NCBI GenBank assembly: GCA_015232015.1
Contig: JADGAM010000021.1
Span: 1 to 38,001 of the forward strand
Direction: 5' to 3'
Length of the DNA: 38,001 nt
Source of the DNA: Oligoflexia bacterium
Lineage (GTDB): Bacteria; Bdellovibrionota; Bacteriovoracia; Bacteriovoracales; Bacteriovoracaceae
Positions 17,980 to 30,755 of the stretch are shown one piece after another. How positions within the stretch are numbered: position 1 is the stretch's first letter; each line of letters starts with the position of its first letter. The notes below the pieces were generated by a model. The model was given only the letters and a program-made list of their open reading frames with translations, searched no databases and had not been told where the DNA came from. A program made the translations under genes and the position numbers.

Positions 17980-19359
17980 TTATGGTCTGAGATAATAATC
18001 TTCAGTACTATTTGGTTCACTTTTGCGAATGAAAAGTCTTTTATTTGCATCTATTCCTAACAATAGTTGAAATATATCAGTTAAAATTGATCGTGAAGAA
18101 TATAAACCATGTCCAAGCCCTGCAATCCCTAGTGCCGGGGCATCTATTTCTCCCACATTTATTGAATCAACTCCTTCTAATTTTCCACAACCACCCATAC
18201 GACGATTTTTATTATAAATCTCTGATACAGCTATGGCATTGTCATTGTATGAACAATAAACAGTAATTCTTCCTGTAATTTGTTTTAGTGCAGGTAAGTA
18301 TTGTTCAAAATCATTAACCGGGATATCTGGAGCATTTAAAATTAATTCTCCAATGAATTTTTTGTTCCACCTTGAATTTTGGGTATAAGGGAAAGTGTTA
18401 GTAATTGTATTAGTTGTTGTATTAGTTATTGTATTAGTAATTGTGTTAGTAGTAATAAAGGCAGCTTCTTCACTCTCAAGATTATTCACAGTTTGTGCTA
18501 ATGCTGGAATCACTATTTGATGTCCCATAGAATGAACCATTAGATGAACAGTAATACCTAATTTAGAAAGTAATTTTAATAAATGTGTAAATTGTGGGAT
18601 TGAACTTATAACATTATTACGATTATTTTCATATGTCTTATTAATCATCGCGCTCTCAAACATACCTTCGGCCGCTCCCGCAGGCCAAGAAAATAAAACT
18701 ATAGGTCCTTGAAATTTTAAATCGTATGCTATCTGTGCAGTTCTAATTATTGCCTCTTCAAACTTAACATTAAAACCATGAACAAAAATTAATATATCAG
18801 TTGGACGTTGTTGTTGTGATTGGTTTAGATATAATTGAAATAAACTTTCTGTAAGTGAGTTTTGTTTTACCACTTTAAAATATTGATGAGAATTATCGCG
18901 AGGATTATCTGTAATTTCAAAATTACCTACACGATGAAATTTAGGAACGTTAATTCGACAAATTCCATATGCTAAAGATGAATTATTATTATTATTATTA
19001 TTATTACTATTGTTCGATTCAACTCCGAATGAATTATTGTTACAAGCGGAGGGGTTGTTAAGCATTTTTCTATTGGTCGCATAGACAATATCTAATGCCA
19101 TTGTTTCATCGTATGAATGTTTTATTAAATAATTTAATTCCTTTCGTAATTGTTCACTTCCAAAGCTGCGAACTACCTTCTTTGCAGAAGGAACAGTGGT
19201 TGGAGTGATAGGAGGATTTATCGATGGAATAGAAGTAGGATTATTAGAAATAGGAATAGATGTTGAACAACTATATATTAGGATCAAAGAAAAAAATGTA
19301 AAAAATGTTGCTATTAATATTCTTGTTAATTTTATTTCTAGAGATAGATAGTTTTTCAT
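17980..19359 (-). CDS. lipoprotein alpha/beta-hydrolase of the DUF900 type
   Basis: 459 residues. Type II signal peptide with lipobox IYSC (Cys31), then a Pro/Ser/Thr-rich spacer. The core matches DUF900 hydrolases: LDIVYATNRK, ILIFVHGFNVKFEEA (oxyanion HGF 194-196), AYDLKFQGPIVLFSWPAG, nucleophile Ser277 in VHSMGH, a candidate Asp in SYNDNAIAVS and His in GLGHGLYSS. It would be an outer-membrane-anchored serine hydrolase of unknown substrate. Two in-frame simple repeats interrupt it: eight-plus Asn around residue 120 and a TNTI-type tract around 305-325; both lie in positions expected to be loops. The upstream region carries a GC-rich repeat (19401-19456). Confidence 0.85.
   Translation of the reverse strand: MKNYLSLEIKLTRILIATFFTFFSLILIYSCSTSIPISNNPTSIPSINPPITPTTVPSAKKVVRSFGSEQLRKELNYLIKHSYDETMALDIVYATNRKMLNNPSACNNNSFGVESNNSNNNNNNNNSSLAYGICRINVPKFHRVGNFEITDNPRDNSHQYFKVVKQNSLTESLFQLYLNQSQQQRPTDILIFVHGFNVKFEEAIIRTAQIAYDLKFQGPIVLFSWPAGAAEGMFESAMINKTYENNRNNVISSIPQFTHLLKLLSKLGITVHLMVHSMGHQIVIPALAQTVNNLESEEAAFITTNTITNTITNTTTNTITNTFPYTQNSRWNKKFIGELILNAPDIPVNDFEQYLPALKQITGRITVYCSYNDNAIAVSEIYNKNRRMGGCGKLEGVDSINVGEIDAPALGIAGLGHGLYSSRSILTDIFQLLLGIDANKRLFIRKSEPNSTEDYYLRP
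18396..18452 (-). repeat. degenerate 12-bp tandem repeat encoding TNTI units
   Basis: Units of the form GT(A/G)TTAGT(T/A)(A/G)TT encode Thr-Asn-Thr-Ile/Thr, about five times, within the DUF900 hydrolase. Confidence 0.8.
18982..19008 (-). repeat. trinucleotide microsatellite encoding poly-Asn
   Basis: ATT repeated about nine times (AAT on the coding strand) gives a run of Asn in the DUF900 hydrolase. A one-unit slip changes length without a frameshift. Confidence 0.9.
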
Positions 19360-22441: not shown

Positions 22442-23227
22442 TTAATTTTCTAATCTTTTTAATACTTCATAAACTAATTGATTAACCATCTCTTCAGTTA
22501 GTTCAGTTGAATCATTTAATTCATTTGCTGAAGATTTTTTTCTTTGCTTAGACTCAAGTAATGCATTTCTTATTCCTTTCAAACGTTCGATCTCTTGAGG
22601 AGGAAGAGGAGTCACTGATGATGAAGCTAAAGAAAGTTTCATTGATTCACTAATAATCTTTGCTGTATGCTCTAGCGATTCCAACTTTAAATATGCATCC
22701 ATCAAACTATCACCAACAGTAAGTGACCCATGTCTTGTTAAAATAATTACATCGTTGTCAATAATTGATTTTTCAATGGATTTTGGAACTGCTTCGGTGG
22801 TTGGAGTTGCGTACTCTGTAATTTTAATATTTCCTAGAGTAAAAATAGTTTCTGGTAAAATACAATCACTAAGCCTAATATTTGCAACTGAAAAGGCGGT
22901 AGTAATTGGAGGATGCGCATGAACTACTGCTTTTATATCTGAACGAAGTTCATAAACCTTAAGATGCATTTTAATTTCACTTGAAGGTTTAGAATTGAGA
23001 CTAGTTCCACCAGAAATTTTTTCTCCATTTTTATTTATTATCACCAATGCTTCTGGAGTTAACATGCCTTTGCTAACTCCACTTGGTGTAGTAACAATTG
23101 TTCCATCATCTAATAAAACACTTACGTTTCCATCATTGGCCGCTATATATCCATTTTTATACATAAGTTTGGCCACATCAACTATTTGTTTCTTTAATTC
23201 TTCTATAGTCATAATTGTCTTATTCAT
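22442..23227 (-). CDS. class II aldolase with C-terminal encapsulation peptide (BMC cargo 2)
   Basis: 261 residues, FucA/RhaD/AraD class II fold. Metal and catalytic residues are present: GNVS (33-36), TPSGVSKG, acid Glu84 (SSEIKMHL), His103 and His105 (HAHPP) and His187 (LEHTAK). It should cleave a sugar-1-phosphate such as fuculose-1-phosphate to dihydroxyacetone phosphate plus lactaldehyde; ribulose-1-phosphate (glycolaldehyde) is an alternative. After a Ser/Lys/Asn linker the last 20 residues, TEEMVNQLVYEVLKRLEN, form an amphipathic helix of the kind that targets enzymes to microcompartments. It is the last gene of the operon, 14 bases behind its paralogue. The start lies in a 14-base direct repeat that makes two candidate ATGs (23227 and 23212); neither has a strong ribosome-binding site. 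Confidence 0.88.
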   Translation of the reverse strand: MNKTIMTIEELKKQIVDVAKLMYKNGYIAANDGNVSVLLDDGTIVTTPSGVSKGMLTPEALVIINKNGEKISGGTSLNSKPSSEIKMHLKVYELRSDIKAVVHAHPPITTAFSVANIRLSDCILPETIFTLGNIKITEYATPTTEAVPKSIEKSIIDNDVIILTRHGSLTVGDSLMDAYLKLESLEHTAKIISESMKLSLASSSVTPLPPQEIERLKGIRNALLESKQRKKSSANELNDSTELTEEMVNQLVYEVLKRLEN

Positions 23228-23241
23228 AATTGTCTTAAATT

Positions 23242-24051
23242 TTATTTATTTAACATTTTTTTTATCTCTTGAGAGATAATCGTTTTTAATACATCAGCAG
23301 ATGGTAGTGATTGTGATGATGATGGAGATTGATATTGATATTGATATTGAGATTGAGCTTGAGATGAATTCATCTTAATTTTTGGTCCAAGACCTAGTTC
23401 TGCACGTTTTATAAGCAAAGATTTAATCTCGTTATCTTGCAGAGTTGTAATCTTTTTATTATCTTGTCTTGAAGACATCTCTAAATAATAATTTATCTGT
23501 GCCATATGCTCTAAAAGTTCAAGACGAAGATATGCTTGCTCAAGACTATCACCAATTGCAAGCACACCATTTCCAGACATCATAAAAACATCCGCTTCGT
23601 TTAGAGCAGTATCAACTCCTCTTAATTGCTCTTCACTACCAGGAAGTGACATAGCAACCACTGGAATATAATTGCCGATAGAAATAATTGCTTCTGCTAA
23701 GTGTGGAGTAATCGCGTTTCCCAGTAGCCCACAAGTGGTCGCAAAAGGAGGATGCGCATGAATAACTGCTTTTGCTTCTGGCCTTACCTCATATGCTTTT
23801 AAATGCAATTTTACCTCTGAAAAAGCTTTGCCATTTCCTGGTCCTGCAATTTTTTTTCCTTCTTTATCCAGAGTGATTATCCAATCATCTCTCATAAGTC
23901 CTTTACTAATTGCAGTTGGAGTGGCCAAGAAATTATCATTAAAGCGAACAGTAATGTTACCATCATGGTTCGCAACAAATCCTTTAGCATCCAGCTTATG
24001 AGAGAAATAGGTAATCTCTTTTGCTATTTGATGAAATGAAAGATCATTCAT
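23242..24051 (-). CDS. class II aldolase with C-terminal encapsulation peptide (BMC cargo 1)
   Basis: 269 residues, paralogue of the next gene. Class II signature: GNIT (31-34), TPTAISKG, Glu79 (FSEVKLHLKAYE), His98/His100 (HAHPP) and His182 (LLEHMAQ), so the zinc site and catalytic acid are intact. Between the two paralogues the middle third differs (here LAEAIISIGNYIPVVAM), suggesting a different substrate or a division of labour. Residues 228-250 are a Gln/Ser/Tyr linker written by a six-base microsatellite, and the end SADVLKTIISQEIKKMLNK is an amphipathic helix typical of encapsulation peptides. The aldehyde product would be used by the aldehyde dehydrogenase in the same shell. It could act as an epimerase-like member instead, but the compartment context favours aldol cleavage. 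Confidence 0.88.
   Translation of the reverse strand: MNDLSFHQIAKEITYFSHKLDAKGFVANHDGNITVRFNDNFLATPTAISKGLMRDDWIITLDKEGKKIAGPGNGKAFSEVKLHLKAYEVRPEAKAVIHAHPPFATTCGLLGNAITPHLAEAIISIGNYIPVVAMSLPGSEEQLRGVDTALNEADVFMMSGNGVLAIGDSLEQAYLRLELLEHMAQINYYLEMSSRQDNKKITTLQDNEIKSLLIKRAELGLGPKIKMNSSQAQSQYQYQYQSPSSSQSLPSADVLKTIISQEIKKMLNK
23327..23363 (-). repeat. six-base microsatellite in the aldolase targeting linker
   Basis: ATTGAT/ATTGAG units encode alternating Gln-Tyr and Gln-Ser residues just before the encapsulation helix of the aldolase. Confidence 0.8.
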
Positions 24052-24091
24052 AATTTTTGTTCTTGATTTTTATTTTTATTTTTATCTTAAT

Positions 24092-24111
24092 GTTTAAATT
24101 TAAATTTAAAC
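24092..24111. other. 20-bp perfect palindrome after the BMC-T gene
   Basis: GTTTAAATTTAAATTTAAAC reads the same on both strands and lies four bases past the BMC-T stop codon. As RNA it would be a weak A-U stem between cistrons, without a U-tract; it may tune expression of the aldolases rather than end transcription. Confidence 0.4.
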
Positions 24112-24114
24112 GAT

Positions 24115-24771
24115 TTAATCTAATTGAGATCCCATTTTTGATTTTTGAACTTCATTTAATTTTTTTAAAATATTGAGAGCGGCCTCTGAAGCTGAATCAA
24201 TTTCCGATTCACTTCCACTTAAAATTAATCTTCCTGAAGCACCAAATGGAATTATGTCTATTAATTTTATGTTAGCTGCTTTTAAGGCCTCATTACATGC
24301 AATTGTTAAGTAAGCTGCGGGAGTAGTCTCTAAAATAAAAATAGACTCTCCGGCCAATACCATATTACCTCTGGCCATTCCAGTAAACATGATCGCATGA
24401 TCTTGTTGTACTCCACGAATAATTTTATTAGTAAGAATTTTTACTTCTGCTCTATCATTTTCACTTAATTTTGTTGCTCTTAAAACTGCACGGCCGGCCT
24501 CTCTAACTTCGCCTTGATTTGGGTGATGAACTTGCATCATTCCAAATTGCCTTTCAGTGACAACCGAGCTTAGACGAACAGAGGTGGCCTTTAATGCAAG
24601 ATCAATCATAGAGTGAATTTCCATAGCAGGAGCAATCTCAATCATCAAAGCAGCATCATATTCAGCAGGATCGTAAACACGATTATCTTTAGCAGTATAT
24701 TGCGCTAATTGGGGTTGCATACTATCTATGAATATAAGAGTACGAAGTTCAAAATTTGTAGGTATGCTCAT
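24115..24771 (-). CDS. BMC-T (tandem-domain) shell protein, permuted/double-stacking type
   Basis: 218 residues with two fused BMC domains forming a trimeric pseudohexamer of the shell facet. Residues 9-25 (LRTLIFIDSMQPQLAQY) with the following Asp/Tyr-rich turn, and the first-domain start MIEIAPAMEIHSMIDLALKA, are features I recall from Haliangium-type BMC-T proteins that stack as dimers of trimers. The second domain runs FILETTPAAYLTIACNEALK to IIPFGASGRLILSGSE. Such proteins are thought to have gated central pores that pass larger metabolites such as cofactors or sugar phosphates. AAGGAG precedes ATG 24771. It lies between deoC and the aldolases. The stacking type is inference from memory. 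Confidence 0.88.
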   Translation of the reverse strand: MSIPTNFELRTLIFIDSMQPQLAQYTAKDNRVYDPAEYDAALMIEIAPAMEIHSMIDLALKATSVRLSSVVTERQFGMMQVHHPNQGEVREAGRAVLRATKLSENDRAEVKILTNKIIRGVQQDHAIMFTGMARGNMVLAGESIFILETTPAAYLTIACNEALKAANIKLIDIIPFGASGRLILSGSESEIDSASEAALNILKKLNEVQKSKMGSQLD

Positions 24772-24835
24772 AATATTTTATTTCTCCTTAATTTTTAATT
24801 TTAATTTTTAATTTTTAATTTTAATTTTAATTTTT

Positions 24836-25648
24836 TTAATAAGACGAATTGCTTTTTTTACCAGTTACAATTGCTACACTAGAAGATGCTCCTACTCGAT
24901 TAGCTCCAGCTTTAATCATTGCTAAAGCATCTTCACGAGAACGAACACCACCAGAAGCTTTAACACCTAATGAAGAACCAACAATTTCTCTCATCAGTGC
25001 TATATCTTCAACAGTTGCTCCACCCTTTCCAAAACCTGTTGAAGTTTTAACAAATGCCGCTCCTGCGGTTTTTGATAAAACACAAACAATAACTATCTCA
25101 TCATGAGTAAGTCCACCTGATTCTAAAATAACTTTTACCGGATAAGGGTGAGATGCCTGGGTAACGGCAACAATGTCATCAAAAACTGTTTTATAATCTT
25201 TGGATTTCAGTGCTCCAATATTTACGACCATATCAATTTCTCTAGCTCCGGCCATAATGGCCTCTCGATATTCAAATGCTTTTGAAGATGCAGTGGCCGC
25301 TCCCAAAGGAAATCCTACTACTGCAATTGGTTTGACCGATGAACCGGCCAATTGTTCTGCAACTAATGGGATGTTTGATGAATTCACACAAACTGTCGCA
25401 AAGTTATACTGTTTGGCCTCTTCACATACTTTTATTAATTCAGCTCTAGTTGCATCTGGTTTTAATAATGTGTGATCAATCATCCTTGCTAATTCATGAT
25501 CATATTCTCCTGAAAAATTGTTATTACCACCACTGCCCCCACTGCCACTGCTACCTTTGCCATTGCTATTACCAGCATTATCAGAAGATGAATTTTTACT
25601 ATTAAATTTCAAGGTACACAAACCATAAGTTCTTATACTTGAATTCAT
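24836..25648 (-). CDS. deoC: deoxyribose-phosphate aldolase with N-terminal extension (BMC cargo)
   Basis: 270 residues. DeoC splits 2-deoxyribose-5-phosphate into acetaldehyde and glyceraldehyde-3-phosphate. Class I aldolase residues are intact: Asp139 (REIDMVVN), Schiff-base Lys201 (FVKTSTGF) and Lys230 (VKASGGVR), within IDHTLLKPDAT to GASSSVAIV. The catalytic domain begins only at about residue 50. Before it come MNSSIRTYGLCTLKF and a Gly/Ser/Asn linker (20-45), the layout of a targeting segment plus spacer, although the segment does not look like the usual amphipathic helix. Acetaldehyde made inside the shell would feed the aldehyde dehydrogenase of the same operon. AAGGGAG precedes ATG 25648. 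The usual ESxLLTDEE-type segment reads ESGGLTHDE here, a modest departure. Confidence 0.95.
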   Translation of the reverse strand: MNSSIRTYGLCTLKFNSKNSSSDNAGNSNGKGSSGSGGSGGNNNFSGEYDHELARMIDHTLLKPDATRAELIKVCEEAKQYNFATVCVNSSNIPLVAEQLAGSSVKPIAVVGFPLGAATASSKAFEYREAIMAGAREIDMVVNIGALKSKDYKTVFDDIVAVTQASHPYPVKVILESGGLTHDEIVIVCVLSKTAGAAFVKTSTGFGKGGATVEDIALMREIVGSSLGVKASGGVRSREDALAMIKAGANRVGASSSVAIVTGKKSNSSY

Positions 25649-25713
25649 TTTTATATCTCCCTTCTATATATATTATCTATATTTTATATATTATTAATTA
25701 TTATTAATATTTT

Positions 25714-25989
25714 TTATTTTTTTGTAACCTTATCTACAATTCCTATTATCACAGAGTGAAGTGGATCATCTTTTGTTCCTAACAACTCTTGAGCGCTCTT
25801 TCCATCTTGTGAATAGATTACAATATCGCCTGGTCCCGCATCGGTTTCATCACATGGAATTGACAAAATCGCCACGCCCTCGTCATTACCATATTGATCT
25901 ATTGGCTGTACAATTAACACCCTATGGTTGTTAAAACATGGATGCTTTATTGTTGAAACGACATTTCCTTTAACTCTTCCTAATTTCAC
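25714..25989 (-). CDS. BMC-P pentameric vertex protein (EutN/CcmL family), third copy
   Basis: 91 residues, one EutN/CcmL domain: MKLGRVKGNVVSTIKHP, then VLIVQPIDQYGNDEG, a DAGPGDIVIYSQDGKSAQ loop and VIIGIVDKV. Pentamers of this family cap the twelve corners of the shell. The start is GTG at 25989 with GGAG eleven bases upstream. Unlike the other two it has a Cys in the first loop (KHPCF) and a second in IPCDETD. It lies 41 bases behind the second BMC-P and 65 bases ahead of deoC. Confidence 0.92.
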   Translation of the reverse strand: MKLGRVKGNVVSTIKHPCFNNHRVLIVQPIDQYGNDEGVAILSIPCDETDAGPGDIVIYSQDGKSAQELLGTKDDPLHSVIIGIVDKVTKK

Positions 25990-26030
25990 AATTTTTCTAT
26001 CTCCAAAATACCAAATATTTTCAAATATTC

Positions 26031-26342
26031 TTAATTATTTTCAAATACCTTTTTTCGTAAATCTTCATCGACTTTCTCCCATTCAATATTAACTGTATCA
26101 ACAAAACCAGTTATGGCCGCATCTACAGGGGGAACACTTTTTAAGGCAAATGCCGCCTCTCTTGAAAGTGTATAATAAACAATGTCCCCAGGGCCTGCAC
26201 TGACAACATCAATGGCAGCAATAATATCCCCACTCTCCTTAAGTTTATCATCTAATGGTTGAATTAAAAGTAATTTTTCCCCATGTAATTTGGGATCTTT
26301 TATTGTTGCAACCACCGTACCTACTACTCTTGCAAAACGCAT
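26031..26342 (-). CDS. BMC-P pentameric vertex protein (EutN/CcmL family), second copy
   Basis: 103 residues: MRFARVVGTVVATIKDP, LLLIQPLDDK, VVSAGPGDIVYYTLSREAA and AAITGFVDTV give the complete EutN/CcmL fold, with a charged C-terminal tail (EKVDEDLRKKVFENN) not seen in the other copies. Expected role is a shell vertex. AAGGAG lies nine or so bases before ATG 26342. It sits just after the PduT-like shell gene. Confidence 0.93.
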   Translation of the reverse strand: MRFARVVGTVVATIKDPKLHGEKLLLIQPLDDKLKESGDIIAAIDVVSAGPGDIVYYTLSREAAFALKSVPPVDAAITGFVDTVNIEWEKVDEDLRKKVFENN

Positions 26343-26399
26343 ATTTTTATGAGCTCCTTATCTAAATAATCTAAATAAATAACAAGTCAAAATAATAAA

Positions 26400-26954
26400 T
26401 CAAAAGAGAGTATTTAAAAATTCTTGATGAGGATTTGCAATTATCTCAAATCCCACTAAATTTCCCTCTGATAATAAAAGTTCTTTAGCGGCACCAACCG
26501 CCTCTTCCATATCATTAAGTTCTCCAGTTAAAATAAAATAGGCCTTGCCGCCTAATCCATTTGCCAATCTAATATCAGCTGCCTGTACGGCCGCTTTTTT
26601 TAGTGCTACATCCATTGCTAAAAAAGCATCAGCAACTGAAAAACTTTCTACAATTCCCACGGCATCCCACTTTATATTTTTTGTTGTAGCAGTCAGTGCA
26701 GGGATAATTCCTTCATGCACGTATGGAATATAAATATTTGCAATTAACAAATCTCCTGCTCGCTCTCTTCCACTTTCCATTGCTTCTTTCACCTCTTCAA
26801 CTTCACCCGCTACCATCACAATAAATTTTCCTGGGCAAATTGAATGGGCCTTTATCAACTGCACTTGAGATTTTTTTATCATAACATCTGCAACAACATA
26901 CCCACGTGCTATTGATTTTAATTCTAAAATTCCGACAGCTGGCAAATTAAACAT
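26400..26954 (-). CDS. PduT-like BMC-T shell protein with Fe-S cysteine
   Basis: 184 residues, two BMC domains (about 5-90 and 95-180), no permutation. The pore-loop sequence SICPGKF is the same as in PduT of the Salmonella Pdu shell, where the Cys (Cys38; Cys40 here) binds a [4Fe-4S] cluster at the trimer axis. It should pass electrons through the shell rather than metabolites. The gene follows the PduS-like gene by six bases, and its GAGGAG ribosome-binding site is made from the last codons of that gene, so the pair is translationally coupled, which fits a PduS-PduT complex. The second-domain loop is NGLGGKAYF. Shell identity is certain; cluster presence is inference from the motif. Confidence 0.92.
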   Translation of the reverse strand: MFNLPAVGILELKSIARGYVVADVMIKKSQVQLIKAHSICPGKFIVMVAGEVEEVKEAMESGRERAGDLLIANIYIPYVHEGIIPALTATTKNIKWDAVGIVESFSVADAFLAMDVALKKAAVQAADIRLANGLGGKAYFILTGELNDMEEAVGAAKELLLSEGNLVGFEIIANPHQEFLNTLF

Positions 26955-26960
26955 ACTATG

Positions 26961-28559
26961 CTACTCCTCCACACTACTGCCACTTATACCACTTGTATTA
27001 TTCGTACTACTTGTATTCGAGTTTATAATTGTTATCTCTTTATCACTTATATTTTTCACAAATCCATTTATAGAAGCATGATAAATTGACCCTAATTTAT
27101 TATTATTTCCATTATTCCCATTACCCATTTCAATATCAATATTAGGAGTAATCGCAATGATATCACCTAAAGAAACATTTGTTCCAACTGTTACAATTGG
27201 TTTTGCTGCTTCTCCAATATGTTCTGCTATGTTTATAGTAACACTTCTAACCTCTGAGGGATATATCACCTCATAATGAACATTATGAACATCATGAGTA
27301 TTATGATTATTATGAGCATCATGAAAATTTTGAGTATCGTAATCGGCCAATCTTAATTTGGTGATTAATTTTTTCGTTGGAATTTTTCTAAATTCTAATG
27401 CTTCTAAAGTTTTTATTGGCGAATTTGAGTGAGGATTTTTCATCCCAGCTCGACTTAAGAGCTTTCTATATTCGGCCAAAATCTTTCTAGGAGAAAGCTC
27501 CATTACATCACAAGCAAAGAGTTCACAAACTCCACACTGACTACATAAAAACGCAGAGGTAATTGCATTTAGTGGTGCTGATAAATTATAATCCAGCATT
27601 CGCATAGATTGATGAGGATTTAAGGAATGTCCGAGTAAAGAACGCGGGCAAAGCTCACTACAACGATAACATTGGCAACAACTGGCCTTAGATTTTTTTA
27701 CCATCTGATTAAGATCTATCTCTTGTGCTTTAACTAATAGATGATCTTTTGGCAGTAGTATTATTCCACTCGATCTTTTACCAACATTAATTTTTTCTGT
27801 ATCTACAAGTTTGCCCATCATTGGGCCACCATCAATAATCTTTAATTGAGAGAGCGGCCGTTTTAATTTTACTCTAGATATTAGATCATTTATGGAAATT
27901 CCGATGGGTGCTTTAAAAACTTTTACTCCTTCAACTTCACCTGTAACGGTTACTAATCTACTGGTTACAGAAATTCCTCCACCATCAATTGCTTCAGATA
28001 ATTGGGCCAAGGTCAATACATTGTGAACCATTACTCCCACCGAAAGAGGCAATCCTCCCTCTGGAATTATCCTGGAAGTAGTCTCGTAGACTAATAAAAA
28101 TTCATCTCCTACTGGATAATAACTTTCAAGCAGATGTAATTTAATTTCAAAAATATTTGGATTATAAATTCCTTGAGATGCTCTTTGACTTATTATTTTT
28201 TCAAGTTCAACTACTACATCTTTGTACTCGCCTTTAACTGCAATAATTCCTAATTTGGCCTGACAAATTCTCATTGAATGTTCAAGACCTAAAATTACTT
28301 GCTCAGGAAATTTGCGCATGAGTAATTTATCACTCTCCAAAAGTGGCTCACACTCACTTCCATTTGCAATAACTGTATCGATTTTTTTTGTCAGAGTTTG
28401 CGCCGAAAGAAATTTTTTATATAAGGGAAAGCCACCACCACCGGCCCCAATAATACCAGCATCCATTGATTTTTTTATAAGATCATTTATAAAATTACTA
28501 TTACTACTGTTATTACTGCTGTTACTATTATTACTACTATTAATACTATTATTACTCAT
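26961..28559 (-). CDS. PduS-like flavin/Fe-S oxidoreductase of the microcompartment
   Basis: 532 residues of the PduS/RnfC family, which oxidises NADH with FMN and two [4Fe-4S] clusters. The dinucleotide/flavin segment GIIGAGGGGFPLYKKF (36-50) and ANGSECEPLL come first. The cluster motifs are Cys295/297/300/304 (CQCYRCSELCP) and Cys339/342/345/350 (CSQCGVCELFAC). Known PduS proteins are about 450 residues; the excess is an Asn/Ser-rich 22-residue N-terminal tract and a His/Asn insert (HDAHNNHNTHDVHNVH, 413-428), both from simple-repeat DNA, and an Asn/Ser tail. It would re-oxidise NADH made by the aldehyde dehydrogenase and hand electrons to the PduT-like protein. The start ATG overlaps the dehydrogenase stop (ATGA). 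No other Rnf genes are near, so RnfC of an Rnf complex is unlikely. Confidence 0.92.
   Translation of the reverse strand: MSNNSINSSNNSNSSNNSSNSNFINDLIKKSMDAGIIGAGGGGFPLYKKFLSAQTLTKKIDTVIANGSECEPLLESDKLLMRKFPEQVILGLEHSMRICQAKLGIIAVKGEYKDVVVELEKIISQRASQGIYNPNIFEIKLHLLESYYPVGDEFLLVYETTSRIIPEGGLPLSVGVMVHNVLTLAQLSEAIDGGGISVTSRLVTVTGEVEGVKVFKAPIGISINDLISRVKLKRPLSQLKIIDGGPMMGKLVDTEKINVGKRSSGIILLPKDHLLVKAQEIDLNQMVKKSKASCCQCYRCSELCPRSLLGHSLNPHQSMRMLDYNLSAPLNAITSAFLCSQCGVCELFACDVMELSPRKILAEYRKLLSRAGMKNPHSNSPIKTLEALEFRKIPTKKLITKLRLADYDTQNFHDAHNNHNTHDVHNVHYEVIYPSEVRSVTINIAEHIGEAAKPIVTVGTNVSLGDIIAITPNIDIEMGNGNNGNNNKLGSIYHASINGFVKNISDKEITIINSNTSSTNNTSGISGSSVEE
27270..27330 (-). repeat. ATGAAC/ATTATG-type repeat encoding the His/Asn insert of PduS-like protein
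   Basis: Degenerate six- to nine-base units (ATGAACATTATGAACATC and relatives) encode the His/Asn run between the cluster domain and the C-terminal domain of the PduS-like protein. Confidence 0.7.
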
Positions 28560-30049
28560 ACAATCCTAAAATAGCCATTACTCAAAACGCATCTACGTGA
28601 ACGTACAAAGTGCCTTGCGGTTGTAACTCCCTCTCCTGTTGGAGAAGCAATGGTAAATGATGTTGGCCCTTCTCCTTCAAATGCAAGACCGGCCAATGCT
28701 GGACCATTTTTGACAAATATGGAAGTGTTCATCTTAACTGCCATCTTGTGCATATTTTCTATATTACGAGAATGAATAACTGCTGTATGTCTGCAACCTG
28801 CCTCTAAGTTATAAGCAAGTTCAATTGCTTCATCAATATTATTTACTCGTATAAGAGGAAGAATAGGCATTAACATTTCTGTTTTTGCAAATGGGTGATA
28901 CTTTTCAGTCTCCACAAAAGCTAATCTAACAGCAGTATCAATTTGCAACCCAACTTCTCCTAAAATTAATTGAACATCTTTACCAACAAAGTTTTTATTT
29001 GGATGTCCACTTTCATCAATCAATAAGCGGGTCAATCTATTTCCATGAAATTGAGAAAGCTCATAAGCACCAGCTGACAATAGTGCTTTTTTCAGAGGAT
29101 TAAATGCCTTCTCAGTAACTATTATCTCTTTTTCCAACACACAGATAATATTATTATCCATGCTTGCACTTGCAATAATATCTCTAGCGGCCTTTTCGAT
29201 GTCTGCTGTTTCATCTACCACTACTGGAGGATTTCCTGGTCCTGCCGCTATAACTCTCTTCCCAGATTTCATTGCAACTTTAACTACTGCGGGTCCTCCA
29301 GTTACAACAAGTAATGCTATATCTGGATTAGTCATCAATTTCTGAGCAGAATCTATTGTTGGATTAATAATGGTTGTTAAAAGATTTGCAGGGCCACCCT
29401 CTGAAATAATTGCTCGATTAAGTAAAGATATTGTATACGCAGACGTTTTCTTGGCCGATGGATGCGGATTAAACACAACTGTATTTCCGCCAGCAAGCAT
29501 TCCAATACCATTATTAATTATAGTTTCAGAGGGATTTGTACAAGGAGAGATACTTCCAATTACACCGTAAGGTGCTTGCTCAATTATGGTTAATCCATTA
29601 TCTCCTGTAAAAGCTGTTGGATTTAAATCTTCTATCCCTGGTGTTTTATTAATGGCCAAAAGATTTTTTTTTATTTTATCATCGACTCTTCCAAGTCCTG
29701 TTTCATCTTTCGCCATTTGTGACAGACGAGAGACATCTTCTCTTGCATATTTTCTTATAGCAGAAATTATCTTTGATCTTTGCTCAAGAGATATCTCTTG
29801 ATATTGCGAGAATGCTCGCTTTGAAGCGGCCACCGCCTCCTCAATGCTATTAAAACATCCCGTAGTAGTTGTTGAAGATGGGAAAGAAGAAGAAAAAGAA
29901 GAAGATAGTAAGGATGAAGGTAAGGTTGAAGAAGGAGGTAAGAGTGAAGAAGGAGCTGGTACAGGCGCTTTTTGTTGCGCTTGTTTTGCTCGATACTCTT
30001 CAACTACTCGACTAACAATATTATCAATTTGGGTTTCGTTTATTTTCAT
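28556..30049 (-). CDS. CoA-acylating aldehyde dehydrogenase with N-terminal encapsulation peptide
   Basis: 497 residues, EutE/PduP family: aldehyde + CoA + NAD+ to acyl-CoA + NADH. Catalytic Cys303 lies in NNIICVLEKE, the position of PduP NLPCIAEKE, with the cofactor segments ISPCTNPSETIINNGI and AAGPGNPPVVVDE. The N-terminus ETQIDNIVSRVVEEYRAK (5-22) is an amphipathic helix as in other encapsulated EutE/PduP enzymes, joined by a Pro/Ser-rich linker (28-63) to the catalytic domain starting at FNSIEEAV. It is the core enzyme expected to consume acetaldehyde or lactaldehyde from the aldolases. AAGGG is nine bases before ATG 30049. It overlaps the PduS-like gene by four bases. Substrate choice between C2 and C3 aldehydes cannot be read off. 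Confidence 0.95.
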   Translation of the reverse strand: MKINETQIDNIVSRVVEEYRAKQAQQKAPVPAPSSLLPPSSTLPSSLLSSSFSSSFPSSTTTTGCFNSIEEAVAASKRAFSQYQEISLEQRSKIISAIRKYAREDVSRLSQMAKDETGLGRVDDKIKKNLLAINKTPGIEDLNPTAFTGDNGLTIIEQAPYGVIGSISPCTNPSETIINNGIGMLAGGNTVVFNPHPSAKKTSAYTISLLNRAIISEGGPANLLTTIINPTIDSAQKLMTNPDIALLVVTGGPAVVKVAMKSGKRVIAAGPGNPPVVVDETADIEKAARDIIASASMDNNIICVLEKEIIVTEKAFNPLKKALLSAGAYELSQFHGNRLTRLLIDESGHPNKNFVGKDVQLILGEVGLQIDTAVRLAFVETEKYHPFAKTEMLMPILPLIRVNNIDEAIELAYNLEAGCRHTAVIHSRNIENMHKMAVKMNTSIFVKNGPALAGLAFEGEGPTSFTIASPTGEGVTTARHFVRSRRCVLSNGYFRIV

Positions 30050-30065
30050 TTTTTAAACCCTTCTT

Positions 30066-30368
30066 TCATTCATTAGAGGATGATTTGGAATAACGAGTTT
30101 TTCCTTCAACATCCATGGTATCCACTATCGCTATTATTACTGCATCTACCGGTTTATTTTGAGTAACATCTGTTAATCTGGCCGAGCTTCCTGATGCAAG
30201 CAACACTATCTCATCAATTCCAGCTCCAACAGAATCGATAGCACAAATAACTCCTCCCTTAGATACTCCCTCAACATCTGCAGGTTGTACCAATAAGAGT
30301 TTGAGTCCATCCATTCTACCTTCTTTCTTAGTAGCAACTACAGTACCTACTACTTTTGCAATTTGCAT
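30066..30368 (-). CDS. BMC-P pentameric vertex protein (EutN/CcmL family), first copy
   Basis: 100 residues from ATG 30368 (MQIAKVVGTVVATKKEG), with GGAG nine bases upstream; an in-frame TTG six bases earlier is not needed. LLLVQPADVEG, the loop SVGAGIDEIVLLASGSSARL and VIIAIVDTMDV complete the fold, followed by a short Ser/Lys tail. The family makes shell vertices. It is the second gene of the operon, between BMC-H and the aldehyde dehydrogenase. Confidence 0.93.
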   Translation of the reverse strand: MQIAKVVGTVVATKKEGRMDGLKLLLVQPADVEGVSKGGVICAIDSVGAGIDEIVLLASGSSARLTDVTQNKPVDAVIIAIVDTMDVEGKTRYSKSSSNE

Positions 30369-30446
30369 AAGCAAAATCTCCTATTCTCAATATCCTCGAT
30401 AATTCTCAATAATTTTCGATAATTCTTAATAATTCTTAATTAAGTC

Positions 30447-30755
30447 TTATTTTGTTTTAGTGGTAGCTGTTGTAGTAGCTGCGCGACCCAATGGTAAAAC
30501 ATCTTCAATATTTGTATGTGGACGTGGAATTACATGAACGGAAACTAACTCACCAACTTTTTCAGCGGCCCTTATACCGGCCTCAGTTGCGGCCTTTACT
30601 GCAGCAACATCTCCACGAATGATTGCAGTAGTAAGTCCTCCACCAACTTTCTCATAACCAACAAGTTCAACTTTAGCCGCCTTCAACATAGCATCAGCTG
30701 CTTCTACCATTGCTACAAAACCTCTAGTTTCAATCATACCTAAAGCGTCAGACAT
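30447..30755 (-). CDS. BMC-H hexameric shell protein
   Basis: 102 residues, single Pfam BMC domain: [20 protein letters not shown], pore loop KVGGG (36-40), [20 protein letters not shown] and [14 protein letters not shown], then an Ala/Thr simple tail. This is the bulk facet tile of the shell and the only BMC-H in the window. The Lys/Gly pore matches those that pass small polar or anionic metabolites. It has a strong AAAGGAG site, is first in the operon and lies about 88 bases behind a predicted promoter, which suits the high expression needed for a shell tile. Confidence 0.97.

What the first reader, a model, noticed from the sequence alone, without database searches (positions are those of the whole stretch)
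26400..28559. PduS/PduT-type electron outlet in a compartment lacking alcohol dehydrogenase and phosphotransacylase
Typical metabolosomes recycle NAD+ with an alcohol dehydrogenase and CoA with PduL or Pta. Neither is in this operon. Instead there is a PduS-like protein with both cluster motifs and a BMC-T carrying the PduT cysteine in SICPGKF, with coupled translation. The simplest reading is that NADH is re-oxidised by sending electrons out through the shell, making the route purely oxidative, and that acyl-CoA or CoA crosses the shell or is handled by an enzyme encoded elsewhere.
Basis: partly seen in the sequence, partly recalled or inferred. Interest (0 to 1): 0.7.

Follow-up and report, generated by a model that had tools for sequence, protein, structure and literature searches.

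The report
Metabolosome with electron outlet, no phosphotransacylase
This bacterial protein compartment probably turns acetaldehyde into acetyl-CoA and appears to send the spare electrons out through an iron-sulfur pore in its wall; the same gene set occurs in several phyla, and two natural variants have lost both halves of the electron path together.

Summary
The 11-gene operon (22442-30755, minus strand) encodes a PduS-like flavin/iron-sulfur protein and a PduT-like shell trimer with the pore cysteine, and no PduL, Pta or alcohol dehydrogenase. The genome has no PduL at all. It does carry a cytosolic Pta-AckA pair, one iron-type ADH and three zinc-type ADHs; none has an encapsulation peptide or a shell-gene neighbour.

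The gene order is a cross-phylum locus type in Bdellovibrionota, Acidobacteriota/Aminicenantes, Myxococcota and Gammaproteobacteria MAGs. Its AldDH forms one clade (100/100). PduL is missing from 15 of 15 such loci but present in 36 of 39 other AldDH+PduS loci, so the missing phosphotransacylase is the unusual feature.

Best new evidence: among 68 PduS/PduT pairs only two have ruined PduS clusters and flavin loop, and exactly those two lack the PduT pore cysteine. The pair therefore works as one redox unit. One of the two carries B12-dependent EutBC in the same operon, which argues against a cobalamin-reductase role. Satellite EutBC-EutL modules in the two nearest relatives support acetaldehyde as the shared intermediate.

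Electron export by PduS/PduT is already a published hypothesis. New variant of a known kind.

The parts
30447..30755 (-). BMC-H shell hexamer (EutM/CcmK-like), first gene of the operon
   Evidence: NCBIfam PRK15474 135 bits against cut-off 133; first gene of the conserved order in complete relatives
30066..30374 (-). BMC-P pentamer 1
   Evidence: EutN_CcmL 97 bits
28556..30049 (-). CoA-acylating aldehyde dehydrogenase with N-terminal encapsulation peptide (MKINETQIDNIVSRVVEEYRAKQ)
   Evidence: PRK15398 661 bits; nearest solved relatives are AldDHs 4c3s, 5jfl; clade with the other loci of this type 100/100; peptide conserved in relatives
26961..28559 (-). PduS-like NADH/FMN/[4Fe-4S] electron-transfer protein
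28425..28448 (-). PduS glycine loop GAGGGGFP (expected NADH/FMN site)
   Evidence: conserved in intact relatives, lost in G009 and L078
27648..27677 (-). PduS cluster-1 cysteines C295, C297, C300, C304
27510..27545 (-). PduS cluster-2 cysteines C339, C342, C345, C350
26400..26954 (-). PduT-like BMC-T shell trimer
   Evidence: two BMC domains 127 bits; PduT-family crystal structures 3pac 4.6e-38 and 3n79 1.2e-35
26835..26837 (-). Codon of pore Cys40 (SICPGKF), expected [4Fe-4S] ligand
   Evidence: alignment; Cys in 66 of 66 pairs with intact PduS, Gln or Ser in the two pairs with broken PduS
26031..26342 (-). BMC-P pentamer 2
   Evidence: EutN_CcmL 79 bits
25714..25989 (-). BMC-P pentamer 3
   Evidence: EutN_CcmL 72 bits
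24836..25648 (-). Deoxyribose-phosphate aldolase DeoC (releases acetaldehyde and glyceraldehyde 3-phosphate)
   Evidence: TIGR00126 264 bits against cut-off 117; catalytic motifs KTSTGFG and VKASGGVR conserved
24115..24771 (-). CcmP-like double-layer BMC-T (BMC-Tdp), candidate gated pore for large metabolites
   Evidence: 7dhq 180 bits, HO-5816 178 bits, CcmP 164 bits; among the most conserved proteins of the operon in relatives
23242..24051 (-). Class II aldolase-family protein a, with C-terminal encapsulation peptide; third zinc ligand His replaced by Asn161 (GNG)
   Evidence: Aldolase_II 118 bits; GNG in all members of this type, His in AldII_b, GRM5-like loci and FucA
22442..23227 (-). Class II aldolase b, zinc ligands intact, C-terminal encapsulation peptide; its place is taken by triosephosphate isomerase in other genomes
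   Evidence: Aldolase_II 152 bits
30896..30954 (-). Terminator-like hairpin with T run between gdh and the BMC operon
   Evidence: -22.6 kcal/mol, z -6.35; sequence

Best explanation
The operon builds an acetaldehyde-oxidising metabolosome. DeoC, and probably class II aldolase b, cleave deoxypentose phosphates in the lumen to acetaldehyde plus a triose phosphate; close relatives add ethanolamine ammonia-lyase as a second acetaldehyde source. The encapsulated AldDH makes acetyl-CoA and NADH. Lumenal PduS takes the electrons from NADH through FMN and two [4Fe-4S] clusters and hands them to the [4Fe-4S] cluster in the PduT pore, from which a cytosolic carrier removes them. NAD+ is thus restored inside without making alcohol. 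With no phosphotransacylase inside, acetyl-CoA leaves and CoA returns, most likely through the CcmP-like gated trimer. Shown here: gene content, conserved cofactor residues, absence of PduL, coupled loss of PduS and PduT redox residues. Inferred: substrate, direction of electron flow, CoA exchange, the outside carrier.
For: All PduS and PduT cofactor residues present. In 68 PduS/PduT pairs the only two with ruined PduS clusters and glycine loop (G009, L078) are the only two without the PduT cysteine (Gln, Ser); they are not sisters in the AldDH tree. L078 has EutB, EutC and EutL in the same operon, so the one member whose own operon holds a B12 enzyme is one that lost PduS chemistry. No PduL in 11 genomes. 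Pta and ADHs of the window genome lack encapsulation peptides. G024 (99% complete) has no PduL, no dedicated Pta and no Fe-ADH over cut-off; G023 (95%) has neither PduL nor Pta. PduL absent in 15 of 15 complete loci of this type, present in 36 of 39 other AldDH+PduS loci. EutBC-EutL satellites in G001 and G020 point to acetaldehyde. Published potentials fit outward flow: NADH -320 mV, PduS flavin -150 mV, PduT +99 mV (PMC6325248).
Against: No measurement exists. Only two loss events support the coupling. G009 keeps DeoC, AldDH and shell without the redox residues, so the outlet is dispensable in at least one lineage. Reduced PduS could act on something other than PduT. G000 is 84.7% complete, so an encapsulated enzyme could sit in a gap, although relatives agree. 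DeoB, the usual route to deoxyribose 5-phosphate, was found in only 1 of 7 genomes. The cytosolic electron acceptor is unknown; the search with PduS gave no RnfC in G000.
Confidence: 0.55

Rival explanations
1. The shell is open enough for NAD(H) and CoA: the CcmP-like trimer lets cofactors exchange with the cytosol, where Pta, alcohol dehydrogenase or respiration recycle them. PduS/PduT is an accessory.
For: Axen et al. offer a leaky shell as one explanation for incomplete cores; BMC-Tdp is highly conserved; cytosolic Pta-AckA and ADHs exist in this genome; G009 and L078 persist without the redox residues.
Against: Does not explain why PduS and PduT residues are kept in all but two members and lost together, nor the conserved AldDH-PduS-PduT gene block.
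Confidence: 0.2
2. PduS is a cobalamin reductase as in propanediol compartments, serving a B12-dependent enzyme.
For: Founding PduS reduces cob(III)alamin (PMC2982820 as summarised in PMC6325248); G001 and G020 carry satellite EutBC, which needs B12.
Against: No B12 enzyme in this operon, and no EutL-type shell gene was found in G000, G024, G012, G023 or G009. L078, with EutBC in its own operon, has a degenerate PduS.
Confidence: 0.1
3. Electrons flow inward: PduT/PduS keep a lumenal component reduced, for example the cysteine motif in the DeoC linker.
For: A C-x(n)-C-x2-C-G-x-C motif sits in the DeoC linker of many members; the pair is in principle reversible.
Against: The motif is absent in G012 and G023, which keep intact PduS/PduT, and in the window. 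The published PduT potential of +99 mV is poor for a donor into the lumen.
Confidence: 0.07
4. A lumenal phosphotransacylase or alcohol dehydrogenase exists but was missed, in an assembly gap or carried in by protein-protein contact without an encapsulation peptide.
For: Genome 84.7% complete; a dedicated Pta exists in five of seven operon-bearing genomes; some known cargo lacks peptides (PMC6325248).
Against: PduL absent in all 11 genomes tested; G024 lacks PduL, dedicated Pta and Fe-ADH; G023 lacks PduL and Pta.
Confidence: 0.08

Closest known systems
SPU (sugar-phosphate-utilising) BMC loci (PMC4207490, PMC8217296)
   Same: DeoC, acylating AldDH, BMC-P paralogues, often TIM; some carry PduS; AldDH lies in the neighbouring clade.
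   Different: SPU types are defined by DeoC plus RpiB in the locus and mostly carry PduL; here RpiB is elsewhere in the genome, PduL is absent, and one or two class II aldolases are added.
HO BMC (Haliangium ochraceum type; PMC8217296)
   Same: BMC-P triplet and CcmP-like BMC-Tdp; an AldDH locus classed in 2014 as having an incomplete core; satellite EUT modules reported.
   Different: Here DeoC, PduS and a cysteine-bearing PduT are in the main operon. Detailed HO locus diagrams are in a supplement I could not open, so identity with HO type II was not tested.
GRM5 / PVM class II aldolase compartments
   Same: Class II aldolase with C-terminal encapsulation peptide, AldDH; GRM5 also has PduS/PduT.
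   Different: No glycyl radical enzyme, no PduL; aldolase a has Asn in place of the third zinc-ligand His.
Isethionate (IslA) compartment of Bilophila wadsworthia (PMC8667426)
   Same: Acetaldehyde-oxidising compartment with PduS/PduT and no recycling alcohol dehydrogenase; same electron-export proposal.
   Different: Has a phosphotransacetylase in the cluster and a glycyl radical signature enzyme.
PduS/PduT of propanediol compartments
   Same: Domain content, cluster motifs, pore cysteine, interaction expected.
   Different: No B12 enzyme or PduO in this operon.

Membership tests
Catabolic bacterial microcompartment (metabolosome) | Shell proteins (BMC-H, BMC-T, BMC-P) with an acylating AldDH in one locus | tested here: met
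Complete-core metabolosome | PduL or Pta and alcohol dehydrogenase in the locus or with encapsulation peptide | tested here: not met
SPU | DeoC (PF01791) in locus | tested here: met
SPU | RpiB (PF02502) in locus | tested here: not met
   no such ORF in the operon; the single RpiB is on contig C376
HO | BMC-P triplet and CcmP/CsoS1D-like BMC-Tdp | tested here: met
   (paralogue clades not typed)
HO | Locus layout and shell-protein clades of the HO type | not testable with these tools
   diagrams are in supplementary data that could not be opened
PduT | BMC-T with pore cysteine, nearest to PduT structures | tested here: met
PduT | NCBIfam TIGR02526 curated cut-off | tested here: not met
   152.3 bits against 250.3
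PduT | Bound [4Fe-4S] cluster | not testable with these tools
   needs EPR or Mossbauer
PduS | PF01512, dicluster and RnfC_N domains, next to pduT | tested here: met
   (RnfC_N 25.0 bits, just under its cut-off of 25.6)
PduS | Cobalamin reductase activity | not testable with these tools
   no B12 enzyme in the operon
RnfC (Rnf complex subunit) | TIGR01945 cut-off and rnf operon context | tested here: not met
   189.9 bits against 245.95; neighbours are BMC genes

The most novel reading that the evidence does not exclude
A cross-phylum class of purely oxidative metabolosomes: acetaldehyde from deoxysugar phosphates or ethanolamine is oxidised inside, electrons leave through the PduS-PduT relay in the shell, and acetyl-CoA and CoA cross the shell, so neither alcohol nor acyl-phosphate is made in the lumen.
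Probability: 0.4. Interest if true: 0.75.

Novelty: new variant of a known kind. Interest (0 to 1): 0.6.

Why it matters
What PduS/PduT do in compartments without B12 has been called an open question (PMC6325248). This locus type removes confounders of other systems (no glycyl radical activase and no B12 enzyme in the operon, no internal phosphotransacylase) and supplies two natural loss variants, one of them with ethanolamine ammonia-lyase. It makes electron transfer across a shell directly testable and asks how CoA is recycled without a phosphotransacylase inside.

Tried and rejected
Encapsulated PTAC or ADH at a satellite locus: rejected for this assembly. Treating the missing alcohol dehydrogenase as the unusual feature: rejected, because Fe-ADH was found in only 6 of the other BMC loci with my small HMM, so its absence beside PduS is common (zinc-type ADHs were not scored there). 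Glutamate dehydrogenase upstream as part of the operon: rejected, because it is beside the operon only in G000 and G001 and a strong terminator hairpin lies between. DNA breakdown by the standard DeoB route: not supported in 6 of 7 genomes. Promoter scan no better than shuffles. Structure prediction not used because sequence matches to solved PduT and RnfC were already clear.

Full report
The finding. The window is one whole contig (38001 bp) of a 4.9 Mb, 84.7%-complete genome. Its nearest named relatives are MAGs titled Oligoflexia bacterium, and other carriers are titled Bacteriovoracaceae and Bdellovibrionales. On the minus strand lies an operon of eleven genes: BMC-H, BMC-P1, AldDH, PduS-like, PduT-like, BMC-P2, BMC-P3, DeoC, CcmP-like BMC-Tdp, and two class II aldolases. 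A strong terminator-like hairpin separates it from the upstream glutamate dehydrogenase. In detail: PduS has both four-cysteine motifs and the glycine loop, and PduT has the pore cysteine, aligned with solved PduT structures. No phosphotransacylase or alcohol dehydrogenase is in the operon.

PduL is absent from this genome and from ten relatives. The genome has only this one locus with BMC domains. It does have an ackA-pta pair (C210), a second PTA_PTB-family protein (C124), an iron-type ADH beside a Crp/Fnr-like regulator (C372) and three zinc-type ADHs; none has an encapsulation-peptide-like extension and none lies beside shell genes. In relatives with the same operon, G023 (95% complete) has no PTA_PTB match at all, and G024 (99% complete) has only a MaeB-type fusion and no Fe-ADH over cut-off. 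So the missing recycling enzymes are not an artefact of an incomplete assembly. Cytosolic enzymes can still process acetyl-CoA once it leaves.

The locus type. Six other genomes of the family, and loci from MAGs titled Bdellovibrionales, Acidobacteriota, Aminicenantes, Deltaproteobacteria (placed in Myxococcota by the tree tool), Gammaproteobacteria and Coxiellaceae, share the order BMC-H, P1, AldDH, PduS, PduT, P2, P3, DeoC, BMC-Tdp, aldolase a, then triosephosphate isomerase or aldolase b where the contig reaches that far. Their AldDHs form one clade with 100/100 support, next to SPU loci. In 15 of 15 such loci with AldDH, DeoC and aldolase on the contig there is no PduL; in 36 of 39 other AldDH+PduS loci of at least 12 kb there is. 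This contrast, not the lack of alcohol dehydrogenase, is what sets the type apart. The PduL model was built from two sequences, so the 36 may be slightly low.

Natural loss variants. I scored the eight PduS cysteines and the PduT cysteine in 68 pairs. In 66 both are intact (at least seven of eight PduS cysteines). In two, G009 and L078, PduS has lost most of the cluster-1 cysteines, the last cysteine of cluster 2 and the glycine loop (GTDKLSVP and GAAGMGYP in place of GAGG-GFP), and exactly these two have Gln or Ser at the PduT pore (Fisher p 4e-4, descriptive because sequences are related). They lie on different branches of the AldDH tree and carry different replacements, so two events are likely. 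This indicates that the PduS and PduT centres are kept or lost as a unit. The PduS reading frame itself is kept in both, which suggests a second, structural role that remains unexplained.

What is oxidised. L078 carries EutB, EutC and EutL upstream of its shell genes and an amino-acid-type permease downstream, in place of DeoC and the aldolase. The two nearest relatives of the window, G001 and G020, carry a satellite ethanolamine permease-EutB-EutC-EutL module. DeoC and EutBC have one product in common, acetaldehyde. Triosephosphate isomerase in other members fits the second DeoC product. Class II aldolases of the fuculose type would give dihydroxyacetone phosphate and a small aldehyde (established chemistry), so aldolase b may be a further input; this is inference. 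L078 also separates hypotheses: if PduS served B12 reduction, the member with a B12 enzyme in its own operon should keep it, but that is one of the two that lost it.

Mechanism. NADH from AldDH, oxidised by PduS (FMN, two clusters), passed to the PduT pore cluster and out; published potentials are downhill. CoA and acetyl-CoA would exchange through the CcmP-like trimer, whose class is predicted to pass larger metabolites (PMC8217296). Direction and CoA exchange are inferred.

Comparison with the known. Axen et al. 2014 already described SPU loci with PduS and no alcohol dehydrogenase, metabolosomes with incomplete cores, and proposed electron transfer through PduS/PduT. Ferlez et al. 2019 and the Bilophila study of 2021 state the same hypothesis. 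The locus fails the SPU definition by lacking RpiB. It resembles the HO type in shell content, which I could not fully test. Hence: a new variant, with new comparative evidence for an old hypothesis.

Limits.

Noticed in passing
23242-24051 (aldolase a) and all its orthologues: The third zinc-ligand His of class II aldolases (FucA His155) is Asn in a conserved GNG motif in every member of this locus type, while aldolase b and GRM5-like aldolases keep His; the protein may be a changed catalyst or a core scaffold with an encapsulation peptide.
   Followed up: partly
DeoC linker in G024 (L027:7560-8522), L054, L056, L058, L062, L064-L068, L070, L071, L079, also SPU loci L092 and L107: Between the N-terminal encapsulation peptide and the DeoC catalytic domain lies a conserved motif like CxxxxxxCxxCGxC followed by a GAxRIG segment, probably a metal or Fe-S site; absent in the window, whose DeoC starts with RTYGLCTLK instead.
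   Followed up: partly
L147:8105-12435 (G001) and L148:4908-9143 (G020): Satellite ethanolamine modules (permease, EutB, EutC, EutL-type shell protein) in the two nearest relatives; no EutL-type BMC domain found in the window's 84.7%-complete genome.
   Followed up: partly
G009 PduS (L030:4414-5781) and L078:9968-11344: PduS reading frames are kept open although their redox centres are gone, which suggests a non-redox role.
   Followed up: no
Window, e.g. PduS N-terminus 28500-28559, AldDH linker, 17980-19359: Many proteins of this genome carry Asn/Ser/Thr-rich low-complexity inserts encoded by short repeats, absent in orthologues.
   Followed up: no
G000 and relatives: DeoB phosphopentomutase was found in only 1 of 7 genomes with this operon, so the source of deoxyribose 5-phosphate is unclear.
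   Followed up: no
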